Assembly: GCA_944326475.1 (NCBI GenBank)
Contig: CALVEC010000018.1
Coordinates: 1 to 48,126 of the forward strand
Origin: Candidatus Gastranaerophilales bacterium
GTDB lineage: Bacteria; Cyanobacteriota; Vampirovibrionia; Gastranaerophilales; Gastranaerophilaceae
Reading direction: 5' to 3'
DNA length: 48,126 bases
The translations under genes were made by a program, and so were the position numbers. The notes below the pieces were generated by a model, which was not told the DNA's origin, searched no databases, and saw only the letters and a program-made list of their open reading frames with translations. Below, piece by piece: positions 638-14,903 of the stretch. Within the stretch, counting starts at the first letter, position 1, and every line of letters starts with the position of its first letter.

Positions 638-1054
638 ATCCTGAGACAAGCGTCTTGGATTTTCTTCTCGCTCGCTGCTGTCGCAGACTACGCTGCGCTG
701 CCGTCTGCTTCGCGCTCGCTCCCCGGGCTGGGTTCACTTCGTTCACACGGCGCCCGTCCGAAAATCCGCCTCAGGATGACGTACCATTTTATGCTTTTTC
801 CGTAAAACTAGCTGTCATGCTGAAGCGACCGGCGTTTGTGTCCACTTCAATATCGCCATGTTCAGCATCTTACCGGCGCTGCGTTCAGCGCAAAACGCGA
901 AGTGTGTAAGATCCTGAACACAAGCGTCTTGGATTTTCTTCTCGCTCGCTGCTGTCGCAGACTACGCTGCGCTGCCGTCTGCTTCGCGCTCGCTCCCCGG
1001 GCTGGGTTCACTTCGTTCACACGGCGCCCGTCCGAAAATCCGCTTCAGGATGAC
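638..1054 (+). repeat. 143-bp GC-rich direct repeat, two copies
   Basis: Copies lie at 638-780 and 911-1054 (offset 273-274). Each starts with ATCCTGA and ends in a TCAGGATGAC box, the two halves of a palindromic end, with an inner GGATTTTC / GAAAATCC inverted pair. The GC-rich interior differs from the A+T-rich surroundings. The end boxes are shared with 20755-20772 and 25836-25860, so this is one member of a dispersed family. Confidence 0.8.
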
Positions 1055-1534
1055 AGAAGTTTTTTGCAAAAAATACGATTATTGACATTTAAACACTCCC
1101 CACCCTAACCCTCCCCAAGCCGGGGAGGGACGGAGAATCATTTTTTTTAATTAACGGGGGTTACAGGGGGTGTCCCCCTGTCGTAACCTCGGTTACAGAC
1201 TCTTAGCATTTACGCACAAAATTTTCGTGGAGCTTGCGGCTAGAAAATTTTGAAGATAAATGCTTAGAGTCTGTTTTGATAAGCGTATTTTCTCTTTTTT
1301 GGTTCCGTTTTTTCTCTTTTGCTCGCAACAAAAGAGAAAAAATGAACGTAAAAAAAATTTGTCCGCTATAATCTTACGGTTTTCATTTTTGTAGGTTTGG
1401 CTTTCAGCCCAACAAGAATATGTCATGCTGAAGCGACCGGCGTTTGTGTCCGCTTCAATATTTCCGTGTTCAGCATCTTACCGGCGCGGTGCTCAGCGCA
1501 AAACGCGAAGTGTGTAAGATCCTGAACACACACG
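813..1534 (+). repeat. 114-bp direct repeat, two copies (813-926 and 1421-1534)
   Basis: Both copies begin TGTCATGCTGAAGCGACC and run through TTCAGCATCTTACCGGCG to AAGATCCTGAACACA, with a handful of substitutions between them. A partial copy lies at 26262-26305, and the middle part recurs at about 47745-47790. The ends are palindromic, resembling REP/MITE-type elements. Confidence 0.75.
1154..1372 (+). repeat. Three-hairpin structured repeat, copy A
   Basis: Hairpin 1 is ACAGGGGG-TGT-CCCCCTGT (1163-1181). Hairpin 2 has 17-nt arms at 1196-1212 and 1257-1273 that pair at 16 of 17 positions. Hairpin 3 has perfect 14-bp arms at 1308-1321 and 1329-1342. A conserved tail TTTGTCCGCTATAATCTT follows. 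Copies B (25890-26118) and C (minus, 43418-43787) keep the architecture while the stems of hairpins 2 and 3 change on both arms, arguing for selection on pairing. Function unknown; it could be a structured RNA or a folded single-stranded DNA element. Confidence 0.75.
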
Positions 1535-4305: not shown

Positions 4306-4896
4306 ATGTTTATTCAATCAGTCCAACCTTACAAATACCCGATTAACATCACCAACACAAACGCACAAGCAGCAACGAACCCCTTAAAAGGCTTGGGTAT
4401 CAGCTCTTACAATGAAACAACGGAACCAAATCTGCTTAAACAAAAAGATTATGCAAAGCTTGTCTCCGTTCAAGACTATATGGACGGCACAAACCACTCA
4501 CACTATGTGCAAAAACACCTTCAAACCCCGGATTTTCAGGAGTTGGCAGAAAGCAAATATTTCAACACTCCGTCGGGCTTTAAAAAATTAACAACAATTG
4601 TATCCGAACTTGAACAAAAAAAGCAAAGCGCAATGGCGACAGTTTATTCCCCGCATTACCACTCGAGAACGATTCCTGATGTTTTGCAGATTCAAGCAGA
4701 TACTGACGTTTCGGATTGCGTAAAAAATATAAACAAATTCTTCAAATCAAAGTTCAGCGACGATTTAAAAAAATACATCAGAGACAACACAACGCTGCTT
4801 ACGGATTTGCACAAAACATCAACAAATTTAGCATATCTCGATGCAGAAAATCCAAATGTTGATTTCTTAAACGACTTTGCATTCGCGTTGCTGTAA
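4306..4896 (+). CDS. Hypothetical protein, 196 aa
   Basis: I do not recognise a family. ATG start with an excellent AGGAGGT site 6 nt upstream and a TATAAT box at 4280-4285, so expression is credible. There is no signal peptide or membrane segment. The N-terminus is polar and low-complexity with Asn/Thr/Ala (about 1-30), then a mixed helical region with two Lys-rich stretches. The start (MFIQSVQPYKYP) is loosely reminiscent of the Pro/Asn-rich leaders at 12219 and 13765 but lacks their SFxG box. It is followed by a strong hairpin at 4919-4950. Confidence 0.7.
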   Translation: MFIQSVQPYKYPINITNTNAQAATNPLKGLGISSYNETTEPNLLKQKDYAKLVSVQDYMDGTNHSHYVQKHLQTPDFQELAESKYFNTPSGFKKLTTIVSELEQKKQSAMATVYSPHYHSRTIPDVLQIQADTDVSDCVKNINKFFKSKFSDDLKKYIRDNTTLLTDLHKTSTNLAYLDAENPNVDFLNDFAFALL

Positions 4897-5243: not shown

Positions 5244-5900
5244 ATGAACACAATAGAACAGAACTTATCTGAACTGAGAAACGACATTGCACCTTGTAAA
5301 GCTAAAATAATAGCAGTTACTAAGTATTTCGGAGCGGATAAGCTTATTGAAGCTTACGATGCCGGATTAAGGGATTTTGCAGAAAATCGTGTTCAAGATG
5401 CTCTTGAAAAATTCAAAGGACTGCCGGAGGAGATAAAGAGAAATTCCACCTTTCATCTTATTGGTCATTTACAGACAAATAAAGTTAAAAAAGCGGTAGG
5501 GAATTTTGATTTGATTCAGTCGGTTGATTCTTTGAGGCTTGCTAAGATGATTTCAGAAGCTGCACAGCAGAAAGGAATTGTCCAAAAAATACTTCTTCAG
5601 GTGAATAATGCGAACGAAGAAGGCAAGACGGGTTTTTCAAAAGAGGAATTGAAAAGGGATTTTAAAGAAATAATTTCCCTTGACGGCATAAAGGTAAAAG
5701 GGTTGATGAACATAGCCCCTATTACGACGGACACTGAGCTTCAAAGACTGTTTTCAGATATGGCTTCTTTAAAAAAAGAATTGGAAGAAGAAAACGGTTA
5801 CGGATTATCCGAATTGTCGATGGGAATGAGTAATGACTACAAAATAGCGGTTCACAACGGTTCCACAATGATAAGAGTAGGTAGAAAGTTATTTTTATAG
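5244..5900 (+). CDS. yggS: YggS/PLPBP pyridoxal-phosphate homeostasis protein
   Basis: This is the cytosolic PLP-binding, non-enzymatic TIM-barrel protein that buffers vitamin B6 and influences amino-acid balance. The Schiff-base lysine is K27 in IAVTKYF. Other family blocks are the FAENRVQDA segment, FHLIGHLQTNKVK, GFSKEEL, KGLMNIAP, LSMGMSNDY and the phosphate-binding C-terminus IRVGRKLF. At 218 aa it is about the usual length. ATG with GGAGG upstream. The 21-bp gap to sepF matches the conserved yggS-sepF arrangement of Gram-positives and Cyanobacteria. Confidence 0.95.
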   Translation: MNTIEQNLSELRNDIAPCKAKIIAVTKYFGADKLIEAYDAGLRDFAENRVQDALEKFKGLPEEIKRNSTFHLIGHLQTNKVKKAVGNFDLIQSVDSLRLAKMISEAAQQKGIVQKILLQVNNANEEGKTGFSKEELKRDFKEIISLDGIKVKGLMNIAPITTDTELQRLFSDMASLKKELEEENGYGLSELSMGMSNDYKIAVHNGSTMIRVGRKLFL

Positions 5901-5921
5901 AAAAATTGGGAGGAGAAGAAA

Positions 5922-6407
5922 TTGGCAGGCGTATCAGACAAAATTAAATCTATAGTAGGTTTTTTAACATCAGGTTTTGAAAGCAGAGACGATATATTTG
6001 ATGACATGGCAAATGAGATTGACGATTACCCGGTGAACGACAATTTAGCACTGGAGCCGATGTATTCTTCTTCGCCTGTAAAATCCCAGTCGCCTAATGT
6101 TGTCAGCCACCCCGGCTTCAAAGGTTATGAAGTCCTTGTTTGCGAACCGCGTTCATACGATGAATGTGTACAAATTGTTAAACACTTAAAAGAAAAGAAA
6201 ACTATCATCCTTAATCTGCACTTGTTAGATAAGGAACAGTCAATGAGAATTGTAGATTTCTTATGCGGTGCGACTCACGCATTGAGCGGTAACCAGCAAA
6301 AAATCGGTGATGCAGTATTTATCTTCACGCCGAGCAACGTTACTCTCAACGCAGAGTCACAAAAAAGCAAATTCATTCGTGATGCGCTTTGGAACCAACC
6401 GCAATAG
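5922..6407 (+). CDS. sepF: Cell division protein SepF
   Basis: SepF polymerises on the inner membrane and tethers FtsZ. The N-terminal stretch (residues 1-20, GVSDKIKSIVGFLTSGF) is the expected amphipathic membrane-binding helix, followed by an acidic linker (about 24-60). The globular SepF domain (about 65-155) contains YEVLVCEPRSYDECVQIV, KKTIILNLHLLDKEQSMRIVDFLCGATHAL and a final IGDAVFIFTPSNV. The start is TTG with GGAGGAG upstream; no ATG fits. Second gene of the yggS operon and closed by a strong terminator. Confidence 0.95.
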   Translation: MAGVSDKIKSIVGFLTSGFESRDDIFDDMANEIDDYPVNDNLALEPMYSSSPVKSQSPNVVSHPGFKGYEVLVCEPRSYDECVQIVKHLKEKKTIILNLHLLDKEQSMRIVDFLCGATHALSGNQQKIGDAVFIFTPSNVTLNAESQKSKFIRDALWNQPQ

Positions 6408-11286: not shown

Positions 11287-12219
11287 TTAAAACCAGTTCT
11301 TCTTTTTCCATTCAGTAAGGCAGTCCAGCAGCGCAAAATTCATAAGTTTTGTGGTGAAGTTCCATTCAAAATCTTTGCTGATATTTGAGGCGTTTTTAAA
11401 ATGAGAAACTTTGCTCATTTCAGGACATGGAGCATATGATTTTATTTGAAAGCAGTTTAAAAACCAGTCGTCCAAAAGCTCTTTTTCTTCGTAAGATATG
11501 GCAGACCCGAACAAATCCGTAAAGTTAACAAAAAGGTCATGCTCATTTTTTCGTCCGGTCTTTTCTAAAGTATCTTCAAAAAAATCCATCGTTTTTCCAC
11601 TGCTTACATAATCCGCATAGAAAATCTGTTTTTTACTGTTCAGCATTTGTTTTGTGAAGCCTATGTCATTAAAGTATTTGTCAAAATCTATACTCTGATA
11701 ATTCTTTTCTGCTTTTATCCGCTTTGAAAAAGGCACTATCATTGTATCAGCCCCCATATATTCAAGAATTTTTGCAAAAAGTGCGCAAGAGCCGCCGATT
11801 GTAACAAAAGTCCAGCCCTGCGGATATTTTTCATCAAGAATATTTTTTAGAATGTATGAAGTTTTGACAAAAAACTGCATATCATCTTCGACAGTTCTGT
11901 TAGTATCTTTTCTGCCGTCGTATTTCATGTAATTAATAATTAACAAACTTCTTAAATACTCTTTTTCATCTTCTGTCAGCCGTTTGTATTCATTTATTCC
12001 GAAAGTTTTGTTTTTCATTAAAGGTATTTGACGGAGTGTTTTTTCGGCAATACCTTGGCGTTCAAAGAAAAATTCACACCAACCGCCGTGGCGTTCGTAT
12101 TTAGCTGCAGCAGGTTTTCCGGAAAAAGAAACAGTATCGCATACAGGCTGTGCTAAAAGTTTTTTGGGGTTGTTTTGGGGTTGATATAAAACAGGGCAGT
12201 TAAAAAAATTTATCTTCAT
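11287..12219 (-). CDS. Hypothetical protein with PQ/SFxG leader, partner of the AAA+ ATPase
   Basis: The function is not recognised. The N-terminal 35 residues form a Pro/Asn-rich leader (MKINFFNCPVLYQPQNNPKK...TVSFSGKP) that parallels the leader of the adjacent AAA+ protein. The body (about 45-310) is mixed alpha/beta. The stretch KQIFYADYVSSGKTMDFFEDTLE (about 195-217) weakly recalls a phosphoribosyltransferase PRPP loop, and VTIGGSCALFAKILEYMGAD could be a nucleotide-fold strand-turn-helix; neither is sufficient for a call. I chose the ATG at 12219, giving a leader like that of its neighbour; an in-frame ATG at 12234 also exists. Neither has a good Shine-Dalgarno, so it may depend on coupling to the upstream gene. 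Confidence 0.6.
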   Translation of the reverse strand: MKINFFNCPVLYQPQNNPKKLLAQPVCDTVSFSGKPAAAKYERHGGWCEFFFERQGIAEKTLRQIPLMKNKTFGINEYKRLTEDEKEYLRSLLIINYMKYDGRKDTNRTVEDDMQFFVKTSYILKNILDEKYPQGWTFVTIGGSCALFAKILEYMGADTMIVPFSKRIKAEKNYQSIDFDKYFNDIGFTKQMLNSKKQIFYADYVSSGKTMDFFEDTLEKTGRKNEHDLFVNFTDLFGSAISYEEKELLDDWFLNCFQIKSYAPCPEMSKVSHFKNASNISKDFEWNFTTKLMNFALLDCLTEWKKKNWF

Positions 12220-12259
12220 ACTTAAGCAAAACATGAAAAAAATAAAAATTGCGAAAGCT

Positions 12260-13765
12260 TTATTTTTTTTGGTCGGAAATACGTTTTATTGCATTGCAGA
12301 AATCATCCTGCACAAGTTTAAAGTTAACAAAATCCTCATTTTTCACAGAATTATTTCTCATTTTTTCATATATACCAGTTCTCTCAAGCGCAAACGAATG
12401 GGCTGCGGAAAAAACTTCCGCAATATCAGAACCTGTAAATTCGTTTTCAAACATCATATTACAAATTCTGTCAATATTAATACTTTCATCTACCGGTTTG
12501 TTTTTTGCATGGATTTGAAAAATCTGTTTTGTTCCATTAAAATCAGGCGGCTGAACATTTAGCACCAAACCGAACCGCCCGGGCTGCAAAAGAGCGGAAT
12601 CTATTAAATCTTTCCGGTTCGTTGCAGCAATAACAAAAACCATATCATCACTTTTTTCTAAATCACTCATAAGTGAAAGAAGCTGATTGACCACATTATC
12701 CTGATATCTGGCCATATCACCGCCCGAACGCTGTTTTGCAATTGCGTCAAATTCATCTATAAAAATTATTGAAGGCTGATTTTTTCGGGCAGAGTCAAAT
12801 ACTTTACGCCAATTTTCTTCTGTTTTGCCGACATTTGCATGAGTCAGGTCATCCGCAGAAAGTTTTATAAAATTTATACCAAGCTCATTTGCAAGCGCAA
12901 GGGCAAGCAATGTTTTTCCACATCTTGGCGGTCCGGAAAGCATAATACCTTTATTGAGCCTGAAATCCTTATAAAACGCGGGATATTTCAGAGGAAACAT
13001 GACCTTTTGTTCAAGAATTTTTATGTTTTCATCTTGCCCGCCCACATCTTTGAAGGTTATTTTTCTTTCCGTTGGCGTCGTTTCGCGGGGTTTGGTAAGA
13101 TTCAGAAGAATAGAAGCGTTGTATTTTTTTATGTTATCTTTGTTTTCAAAGTATGATATTTTTTCTACTTCCTTTGCAAAAATTTTTTCGGAATCTCTCG
13201 GGAAAATATTTGTCTTTATAAAATTTTCCTGCCTAATAAACCCAAACCTTATATAATCATTATTTTTTAATTCAACAGGCTCATCCGCAGTATTGATATA
13301 TGTTTTTTTTACATTTACACCGTATTCTTCCTTGCCGCCCTCAAGCAGCATTGCGTTATCCAGCATGTGCAGTTTAAAAATTTTATATTTTCCGTCTTTT
13401 GCCCTAAAAACCGCAAGCGATGCCGTATTCAGATTATTTTTTACAAAATATATATTACTAAGCGGAAAATCAAGAACAGCATTGTATTGAATCAACAGAT
13501 TCGCCGCATTATCCAAGTCATTTACAAAAAGCAGCAGGCTGTTTTGGTCAAGATGCGATAGTACTGAATTGAATCGCGCCTCAACCTTTTGCTCCTCATT
13601 AGGTGATTTATTAAACAATCCGTGAAAAGAAATATTGTTCTGCGCTGTTATTTGTTCGTGTGGCAAAAGAACCTGTTCCTGAGTTTGAGCGGGAATATTT
13701 TGTCCTGAATTTACGGTCTTTTTTGTATACTGCGGTAAAAAATATGTTATACTGCTTACTTTCAT
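12260..13765 (-). CDS. AAA+ ATPase (Cdc48/FtsH-like module) with PQ/SFxG leader
   Basis: The C-terminal half is a classical AAA module: Walker A GPPRCGKT near residues 274-281, Walker B IIFIDEFD near 332-339, the second region of homology AATNRKDLIDSALLQPGRFG with arginine finger, and a C-terminal lid with sensor-2-like EFTGSDIAEVFSAA. Residues 1-50 are a Pro/Gln-rich leader (Y-F-L-P-Q...KK...NNISFHG); residues 55-230 are an unrecognised substrate or adaptor domain. No zinc-protease domain or membrane helix is present, so it is not FtsH. The start is ATG at 13765 with a weak AGAGAG upstream. It forms a two-gene operon with the 311-aa protein. Confidence 0.82.
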   Translation of the reverse strand: MKVSSITYFLPQYTKKTVNSGQNIPAQTQEQVLLPHEQITAQNNISFHGLFNKSPNEEQKVEARFNSVLSHLDQNSLLLFVNDLDNAANLLIQYNAVLDFPLSNIYFVKNNLNTASLAVFRAKDGKYKIFKLHMLDNAMLLEGGKEEYGVNVKKTYINTADEPVELKNNDYIRFGFIRQENFIKTNIFPRDSEKIFAKEVEKISYFENKDNIKKYNASILLNLTKPRETTPTERKITFKDVGGQDENIKILEQKVMFPLKYPAFYKDFRLNKGIMLSGPPRCGKTLLALALANELGINFIKLSADDLTHANVGKTEENWRKVFDSARKNQPSIIFIDEFDAIAKQRSGGDMARYQDNVVNQLLSLMSDLEKSDDMVFVIAATNRKDLIDSALLQPGRFGLVLNVQPPDFNGTKQIFQIHAKNKPVDESINIDRICNMMFENEFTGSDIAEVFSAAHSFALERTGIYEKMRNNSVKNEDFVNFKLVQDDFCNAIKRISDQKK

Positions 13766-14093: not shown

Positions 14094-14903
14094 ATGCAAT
14101 TGAATTTTAACAGAACAAATTATTCATACAATCCGGCTTTTTCCTCCTGCCATAGAGATGTAAGCGACAAAACCGGTAAAGTTTTATACAGGAACAACAC
14201 CTCAATGTTTCGTTCCGACATAAAAAACTGGGACAAATTCGTAGATTATCTTGAAAAGAAATTTAAAGACGCAGACAGGGTTAATATTTATTGTCTGGCG
14301 TCCTCCGCAGGAGATGAGCCGTACTCACTGGCAATAAAATTGATAGAACGTCTCGGAGAAGAAAAGGCGCAGAAGTATTTTCCTATTTATGCCTCTGACT
14401 GCGATAAAAAAATAATTAACCTTGCAAAATGCGGATATCTGCCAATTTTTGATGAAGATATAGACAAAATATACTGTCATACAAACGGAAATATCGACAA
14501 GTATTTTGATATCGCGTACAAAAGACCAAAGTTCATAGACGATATGGATATTTCTTATGACACATTAATGCAGGTAAAACCATATTTAAAGGACAAAGTT
14601 GTGTTTAGCGTTGCAGACGCAACTAAAAAATGCAAAACTATCCGACCTGAAAATACAATCGTTTTGGCGCGCAATTTCTGGCCGTACCTTAAAAACGAGG
14701 AAACAAGGATTAAGTTCGCAAATGATTTATTTAAAAATACCGGTAAAAACTCGATAATCGTTGTCGGGGAATTTGACGACTCAACCGGCTCAGGCGCAGC
14801 AAAAAATCTCTACGATGCAGGTTTTTATTGCAACCCCGAGATTTACACGATTTTTGAAAAAAACGAAGTTCCCCATACTGCCTATTTCAGTTATCTCTTA
14901 TAA
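14094..14903 (+). CDS. CheR-like SAM-dependent methyltransferase-fold protein
   Basis: Residues about 45-265 resemble the CheR catalytic domain: VNIYCLASSAGDEPYSLAIKLIE corresponds to the SAM-binding ..sagCStGEEpYSlAm.l segment, FPIYASDCDKKIINLAKCGYLP to the ..atDis...l..A..G.Y segment, and NTIVLARNFWPYLKNEETRIKF to the ..vi.CRNvliYf segment. The usual Cys/Thr of the SAM loop is AlaSerSer here, so binding may be altered. No chemoreceptor or Che gene is nearby. The N-terminus (MQLNFNRTNYSYNPAF) is Asn/Tyr-rich, like other leaders in this region. I use ATG 14094; a longer reading begins inside the repeat. No Shine-Dalgarno is seen. Confidence 0.65.
   Translation: MQLNFNRTNYSYNPAFSSCHRDVSDKTGKVLYRNNTSMFRSDIKNWDKFVDYLEKKFKDADRVNIYCLASSAGDEPYSLAIKLIERLGEEKAQKYFPIYASDCDKKIINLAKCGYLPIFDEDIDKIYCHTNGNIDKYFDIAYKRPKFIDDMDISYDTLMQVKPYLKDKVVFSVADATKKCKTIRPENTIVLARNFWPYLKNEETRIKFANDLFKNTGKNSIIVVGEFDDSTGSGAAKNLYDAGFYCNPEIYTIFEKNEVPHTAYFSYLL

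What the first reader, a model, noticed from the sequence alone, without database searches (positions are those of the whole stretch)
11287..13765. Adjacent proteins share an N-terminal leader: Y-(x)-PQ-x-KK ... (V/I)SFxG
The AAA+ ATPase (YFLPQYTKK ... NNISFHG, residues 8-49) and its operon partner (LYQPQNNPKK ... DTVSFSG, residues 11-34) have unrelated bodies but similar leaders. They are not Sec, Tat or pilin signals. Other hypothetical proteins nearby (MFIQSVQPYKYP at 4306, MQLNFNRTNYSYNPAF at 14094) have loosely similar Asn/Pro/Tyr-rich starts. A shared leader on different domains suggests a sorting, assembly or processing tag not covered by known signals.
Basis: partly seen in the sequence, partly recalled or inferred. 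Interest (0 to 1): 0.62.

Follow-up and report, generated by a model that had tools for sequence, protein, structure and literature searches.

The report
Lineage-specific N-terminal tag on unrelated enzymes
In one family of gut bacteria, dozens of otherwise unrelated cytosolic-type enzymes begin with the same short, unstructured tag (roughly MKI..I, then a variable stretch, then VSFxG) that matches no known sorting signal, which points to an unrecognised way of routing or recruiting proteins in these cells.

Summary
Y-x-PQ-x-KK is not conserved in orthologues. The real leader has a head M-[K/R/Q]-[I/V]-x-x-[I/V], a disordered hypervariable linker of 0 to about 55 residues, and a tail [V/I]-S/N-F-x-G. 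In 13 AAA orthologues only M1, F47 and G49 of the leader are invariant. SFxG-like motifs are about 2.5 times enriched in the first 80 residues across Gastranaerophilaceae, are not enriched in sister families, and go with the MK[I/V] start (OR 7.3, p = 7e-6). The compact form (MKIxxISFxG) occurs at 8 N-termini against 0.05 expected. A fixed-frame DNA pattern gives 39 hits in the family against 2 for the reversed-pattern control, and 2 against 4 outside it. Tagged bodies include AAA, Ski2-like helicase, GlgA-like/PIG-L, TlyA, phosphoglucomutase-like, DEDD exonuclease and tyrosine phosphatase. Leaderless homologues of the helicase and TlyA exist. The leader matched no family model or searched literature. 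Best reading: an N-terminal docking/sorting tag with an unknown receptor. Export by a near-universal second type III apparatus is a rival. No function has been shown.

The parts
12260..13765 (-). AAA+ ATPase (501 aa) carrying the leader; Cdc48/FtsH-like AAA module at residues about 234-500 preceded by a mostly beta domain (about 57-200)
   Evidence: PF00004 E 1e-38; AF2 model; p97 D1 Z 29, rmsd 1.8, 251 aligned, over residues 235-501
13619..13765 (-). Leader of the AAA protein, residues 1-49
   Evidence: pLDDT < 50 for residues 1-54 and no secondary structure; 13 orthologues aligned
13748..13765 (-). Head motif MKVSSI (consensus M[KRQ][IV]xx[IV])
   Evidence: all 13 orthologues start M[KRQ][IV]
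13619..13633 (-). Tail motif ISFHG (consensus [VI][SN]FxG)
   Evidence: F47 and G49 invariant in 13/13, entropy 0 against 2.43 bits mean in the linker
11287..12219 (-). Partner protein (310 aa from the corrected start), no Pfam family, weakly phosphoribosyltransferase-like fold
12118..12219 (-). Leader of the partner, residues 1-34 (MKINFF ... VSFSG)
   Evidence: orthologues L065, L066 keep MKIN and DTVSFS but end SFSR, not SFSG
13718..13744 (-).
   Evidence: absent from the 12 other orthologues
12160..12189 (-).
   Evidence: YYQIQNKNTTKK in the orthologues
14094..14903 (+). CheR-like methyltransferase with variant leader MQLNFNRTNYSYNPAFSS (14094-14147)
   Evidence: PF01739 E 8e-18; orthologues MQINFNKINYSYTPSFSS and MQINLSNINYKNSPNFSS

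Best explanation
The leader is a protein-level N-terminal docking (sorting) tag specific to Gastranaerophilaceae. A short hydrophobic/basic head at the very N-terminus (M[KRQ][IV]xx[IV]) and a tail ([VI][SN]FxG), joined by a disordered linker of variable length or directly fused in compact forms (MKIxxISFxG), are bound by a common cytosolic partner. That partner recruits many unrelated, mostly accessory enzymes to one place or assembly. Shown here: the motif, its position, its lineage restriction, its predicted disorder in the AAA protein, its conservation pattern, and its absence from leaderless homologues. Inferred: the receptor, that recruitment (not export or cleavage) is the outcome, and which place it is.
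For: Only the two ends are conserved: entropy is head 0.64, linker 2.43, tail 1.03 bits, with F and G at 0, while the protein bodies differ completely. The compact form sits at 8 N-termini of 1151 non-redundant proteins against 0.05 expected. A frame-fixed DNA pattern scores 39 against 2 for the reversed control in the family, and 2 against 4 outside it; of 30 loci read, about 20 open ORFs of 100 aa or more in roughly ten protein families. Codons of S-F-K-G differ between proteins (AGC TTT AAA GGC, TCG TTT AAG GGA, TCC TTC AAG GGC and others), so selection is on protein, not on a copied DNA element. Homologous helicases exist with the leader (L179-L190, L195) and without it (L202-L208, body starts at once); TlyA has it only in the window's genus among those sampled. 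Tagged proteins look cytosolic and their hydrophobic-segment rate is at background, 12/47 against 29%. Tagged genes sit side by side more often than chance, 8 pairs against 2.1, p = 0.001, with a broad rule.
Against: No receptor or destination is identified. Several patterns were refined after seeing the data; the rule frozen from the AAA family alone, tested on other proteins, still holds but with modest numbers (6/89 against 20/1528, p = 0.002). The tail is not strict: partner orthologues have SFSR and the CheR-like family FSS. One tagged protein repeats SFKG internally (L038:9897-12332), so the tail can sit away from the N-terminus. The broad rule has background in sister families (0-3%), and one compact-like N-terminus was found among 456 sister-family proteins.
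Confidence: 0.45

Rival explanations
1. [quoted passage not shown]
For: The FlhA/SctV family was found in 59 of 60 family genomes, usually two full copies. Four of four genomes checked that lack the flagellar-type FlhA keep one FliP and one FliF/YscJ, and the one checked for FlhB has it. Leader linkers are T/P/N/Q/S-rich and D/E-poor. In flagellar FlgD, residues 2-5 plus the 36-40 motif form a two-part export signal (PMC8983047). Tagged genes are patchy and include tyrosine-phosphatase-like enzymes.
Against: The published flagellar signal needs at least 26 residues between its two parts (PMC8983047), but many leaders here have F at residue 8. Sister families f3, f6, f8 and f9 have the same second FlhA, but sampled genomes of f3, f6 and f8 show essentially no leader. 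The small protein beside FliF2 in L219 has no leader. Tagged bodies include the only TlyA copy in the genome, GlgA-like and phosphoglucomutase-like enzymes, unlikely secreted proteins.
Confidence: 0.22
2. The leader is a propeptide or processing signal, cut at or near SFxG, to activate or release the body.
For: The mostly conserved G lies at the leader/body border in AAA, GlgA-like and helicase families.
Against: No candidate protease is linked; the residue after G is not conserved; the G is replaced in partner, CheR-like and some helicase orthologues.
Confidence: 0.12
3. Chance or shared ancestry: a common MK[I/V] start plus a common tetrapeptide, or one duplicated 5' end copied in front of several genes.
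For: MK[I/V] starts are common; the raw SFxG excess includes unrelated proteins such as acyl carrier protein.
Against: Head-tail association, compact-form excess, family restriction with a reversed-pattern control; different codons; linkers with no similarity.
Confidence: 0.08
4. The tail is part of the fold of each body (an intramolecular strand) and the head just helps translation start.
For: The tail directly precedes the body.
Against: The bodies are unrelated; in the AAA model residues 1-54, tail included, are disordered and undocked.
Confidence: 0.08

Closest known systems
Flagellar early-substrate export signal (N-terminal hydrophobic signal plus gate recognition motif; PMC8983047)
   Same: Two-part N-terminal signal with a hydrophobic element at the extreme N-terminus, a spacer, and a downstream hydrophobic motif
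   Different: There the spacer must be 26 residues or more and the proteins are rod/hook subunits; here the spacer goes to zero, the tail FxG is sequence-conserved and the proteins are enzymes
Type III effector N-terminal secretion signals (general knowledge)
   Same: N-terminal, disordered, polar, poor in acidic residues, on diverse bodies
   Different: Those have no conserved sequence motif; here F-x-G and M[KR][IV] are conserved
Cargo-loading peptides of encapsulins and bacterial microcompartments (general knowledge)
   Same: Short linear motif that recruits unrelated enzymes to one assembly through a flexible linker
   Different: Known peptides have other sequences or are amphipathic helices; no shell gene was looked for here
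Organelle transit peptides (general knowledge)
   Same: Hypervariable, polar, acid-poor N-terminal extension on copies of otherwise untagged enzymes
   Different: No organelle is known in these bacteria; here the two ends are strongly conserved

Membership tests
Type III (flagellar-type) early-substrate export signal | Hydrophobic N-terminal element plus downstream motif at least 26 residues away | tested here: not met
   Head present, but the F lies at residue 8-16 in many leaders; criterion from PMC8983047
Type III (flagellar-type) early-substrate export signal | Dependence of export on FlhA/FlhB | not testable with these tools
   Apparatus genes are present; export not measurable
Sec / lipoprotein / Tat / type IV pilin signal | Hydrophobic h-region with cleavage site, twin arginine, or GFTLxE | tested here: not met
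   No hydrophobic segment and no such motif in the leaders of AAA, partner, helicase or GlgA-like proteins (and the sequences)
Known protein family or domain covering the leader | A Pfam or NCBIfam match within the leader | tested here: not met
   Matches of domain-level strength start after the leader in the proteins scanned
Encapsulin or microcompartment cargo peptide | Shell protein encoded in the same genome | not tested
Copied DNA element (mobile 5' end) | Nucleotide similarity of leaders between genes | tested here: not met
   Different codons and unrelated linkers

The most novel reading that the evidence does not exclude
Gastranaerophilaceae have an undescribed protein-routing system in which a cytosolic receptor reads an N-terminal M[KR][IV]xx[IV]...[VI]SFxG tag and gathers dozens of accessory enzymes into a compartment, condensate or secretion machine.
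Probability: 0.4. Interest if true: 0.85.

Novelty: new variant of a known kind. Interest (0 to 1): 0.64.

Why it matters
Gastranaerophilales are common, hardly cultured gut relatives of cyanobacteria, and many of their proteins have no annotation. A lineage-wide N-terminal tag would show which of these proteins act together, would give a handle to find the receptor and its destination, and would add a routing signal to the few known in bacteria. The test (leader fusions, F/G point mutants, pull-down) is simple.

Tried and rejected
Y-x-PQ-x-KK as part of the motif: not conserved. The leader as a signal peptide: no h-region. The leader as a phage trait: viral contigs gave only AAA-module matches for A2 and none for the partner. 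Defence system: PADLOC matches are only generic AAA and helicase modules. A unique link to the second type III apparatus: that FlhA type also occurs in sister families without leaders. Papers on a secretion system or N-terminal motif in this lineage: nothing relevant among the hits. The partner's fold stays unsure: mean pLDDT 55, best Foldseek E 0.03, with several phosphoribosyltransferases at probability above 0.9. TlyA start: an internal ATG at residue 20 could be used, but the leader is kept in two other genomes of the genus.

Full report
WHAT WAS CHECKED. The window is one contig (G000:C18) of a 2.14 Mb, 98.7% complete genome. The closest named relative is a Candidatus Gastranaerophilales MAG, so this is a gut-type, non-photosynthetic relative of cyanobacteria. 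The AAA+ ORF (12260-13765, minus) and its downstream neighbour (11287-12234, minus) are as described. Orthologues of the neighbour start at MKIN, so its start is most likely 12219 and both proteins begin MK[I/V]. The neighbour has no Pfam match.

THE MOTIF, CORRECTED. Orthologues of the AAA protein were found in 17 of 60 family genomes. In a 13-sequence alignment the leader has three parts: a head, M[KRQ][IV] in 13/13, most continuing xx[IV]; a linker without detectable conservation, which puts the F at residues 43-63; and a tail [VI][SN]FxG in which F47 and G49 are invariant. Mean column entropy is 0.64 bits for the head, 2.43 for the linker, 1.03 for the tail (0 for F and G), 1.99 for the next 180 residues and 1.20 for the AAA module. 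Y-x-PQ-x-KK occurs in none of the other 12. In two partner orthologues the PQ is lost and the tail reads SFSR, so the G is not strict there. The predicted AAA model has residues 1-54 below pLDDT 50 and without secondary structure, while the body is ordered: the leader is predicted disordered and does not dock on its own body.

GENOME-WIDE TEST. I took 1.24 Mb of this genome plus 0.4 and 0.2 Mb of two family members and 0.12-0.2 Mb of four genomes from other families of the class and called genes with a simple hexamer/ribosome-site script; start sites are therefore approximate. In the own genome SFxG occurs in 35 N-termini (first 74 residues) against 12.8 expected from residues beyond 100 (p = 2.4e-7). 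After collapsing homologues over three family genomes, an SFxG-like motif is in 35/1086 proteins (first 80 residues) against 11.6/817 (80-160); in the four outgroup genomes 8.6/430 against 7.3/351. The head and the tail go together (OR 7.3, p = 7e-6), with no association for residues 100-180. A rule frozen from the AAA alignment alone gives 8/91 head proteins with the tail in the first 80 residues, 0/69, 0/57 and 0/45 in the next three windows, and 20/1528 in proteins without the head; leaving out the AAA family it is 6/89, p = 0.002.

COMPACT FORM. Some leaders have no linker: MKINQISFKG, MHISPVSFKG, MKVNPVSFGK. The pattern M(x)[KRHQ][IV]xx[IVF][STNA]F is at 8 N-termini of 1151 non-redundant proteins against 0.05 expected from its rate elsewhere (the pattern was drawn after seeing examples, so the p value of 1e-15 is optimistic; the sister-family sample had 1 of 456 against 0.06 expected). 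A DNA pattern with fixed reading frame was then searched in 382 genomes of the class: by my count of the table, 39 matches in the family against 2 for the tool's reversed-pattern control, and 2 (both with an in-frame stop) against 4 outside the family. Of 30 loci read, about 20 open ORFs of 100 aa or more, about nine are short or chance, and one runs off the contig. They include seven alike tyrosine/dual-specificity phosphatases (two confirmed by Pfam), a possible kinase (by eye only; no Pfam match), and TlyA orthologues from the same genus.

WHAT CARRIES IT. Tagged bodies: AAA+, Ski2-like DEAD/DSHCT helicase, FtsJ/TlyA methyltransferase, starch-synthase/glycosyltransferase/PIG-L fusion, TPR protein with a variant, phosphatases and DUF2963, phosphoglucomutase-like and DEDD exonuclease, a CheR-like protein with a variant, and many large proteins without any family. 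Helicase homologues divide into those with the leader and those that start directly with the body; TlyA carries it in G000, G033 and G130 while 18 sampled TlyA from other genera of the family start at or within a few residues of the body. The three starch-synthase-type homologues keep MRI/VKI and KISFKG with different linkers. Hydrophobic segments are no more common than background. Codons of S-F-K-G differ between proteins, so this is not a copied DNA element. Tagged genes are neighbours more often than expected (8 pairs against 2.1, p = 0.001, broad rule); the window is one such neighbourhood. A distant paralogue of the partner lies beside the tagged helicase as well (L022).

MECHANISM. The anatomy (two short conserved ends, free linker, unrelated bodies, leaderless homologues) fits a short linear motif read by a common partner. 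I rate recruitment by a cytosolic receptor as most likely (0.45). Export by a type III apparatus is the main rival (0.22). FlhA was found in 59 of 60 genomes, and genomes without the flagellar-type FlhA keep FliP and FliF, one also checked for FlhB. Against export: sister families with the same FlhA show essentially no leader, the compact form leaves no spacer while flagellar signals need 26 residues or more (PMC8983047), and several tagged enzymes look like housekeeping types. Cleavage, chance and intramolecular roles are less likely. None of these steps was shown experimentally, and the receptor is unknown.

NOVELTY. No Pfam or NCBIfam domain covers the leader in the proteins scanned, and full-text searches for this lineage found no description; subscription papers are not held, so absence is not proof. 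N-terminal sorting tags are a known kind of thing; this sequence and this lineage-wide use are, as far as I could test, not described.

Noticed in passing
L010:6392-7858 (G000:C1:106392-107858); same in nearly all of 60 family genomes: A soluble protein of about 490 aa whose C-terminal part matches only the cytoplasmic domain of FlhA (FHIPEP about 315-654), beside a RicT-like gene. In the class sample it is in all Gastranaerophilaceae and only a few other genomes; an FlhA-C without a membrane part is odd and a candidate adaptor.
   Followed up: partly
G000:C20:12022-17540, C4:68615-69640, C3:60560-61135; G006:C11:295843-301015: A second set of flagellar-type export genes (FlhA, FlhB, FliP, FliF) in scattered loci, kept in genomes that lack the flagellar-type FlhA; in both genomes read, FlhB2 lies next to a small sigma-factor-like gene.
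   Followed up: partly
window 11287-12219 and L022 about 5423-6184 (-): The partner has a weakly predicted phosphoribosyltransferase-like fold, and a distant paralogue sits next to the leader-tagged Ski2-like helicase: a partner/ATPase pairing seen twice.
   Followed up: partly
L054:3434-6721 (-): Fusion of a starch-synthase-type glycosyltransferase with a PIG-L/BshB-like deacetylase, 1095 aa, in 3 of 40 family genomes.
   Followed up: no
L038:9897-12332 (-): Tandemly repeated domain in one protein; the second copy also has NPSFKGFF in front of it at about residue 385.
   Followed up: no
window 655-1108, L222:2966-3223, L035:11283: A dispersed repeat, read in one frame as LTGAAFSAKREVCKI, recurs in otherwise non-coding stretches of the genome.
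   Followed up: no
window 12260-13765, residues about 100-190 of the AAA protein: The beta domain between leader and AAA module resembles a forkhead-associated domain by eye; Pfam shows none and the fold search did not test it separately.
   Followed up: no
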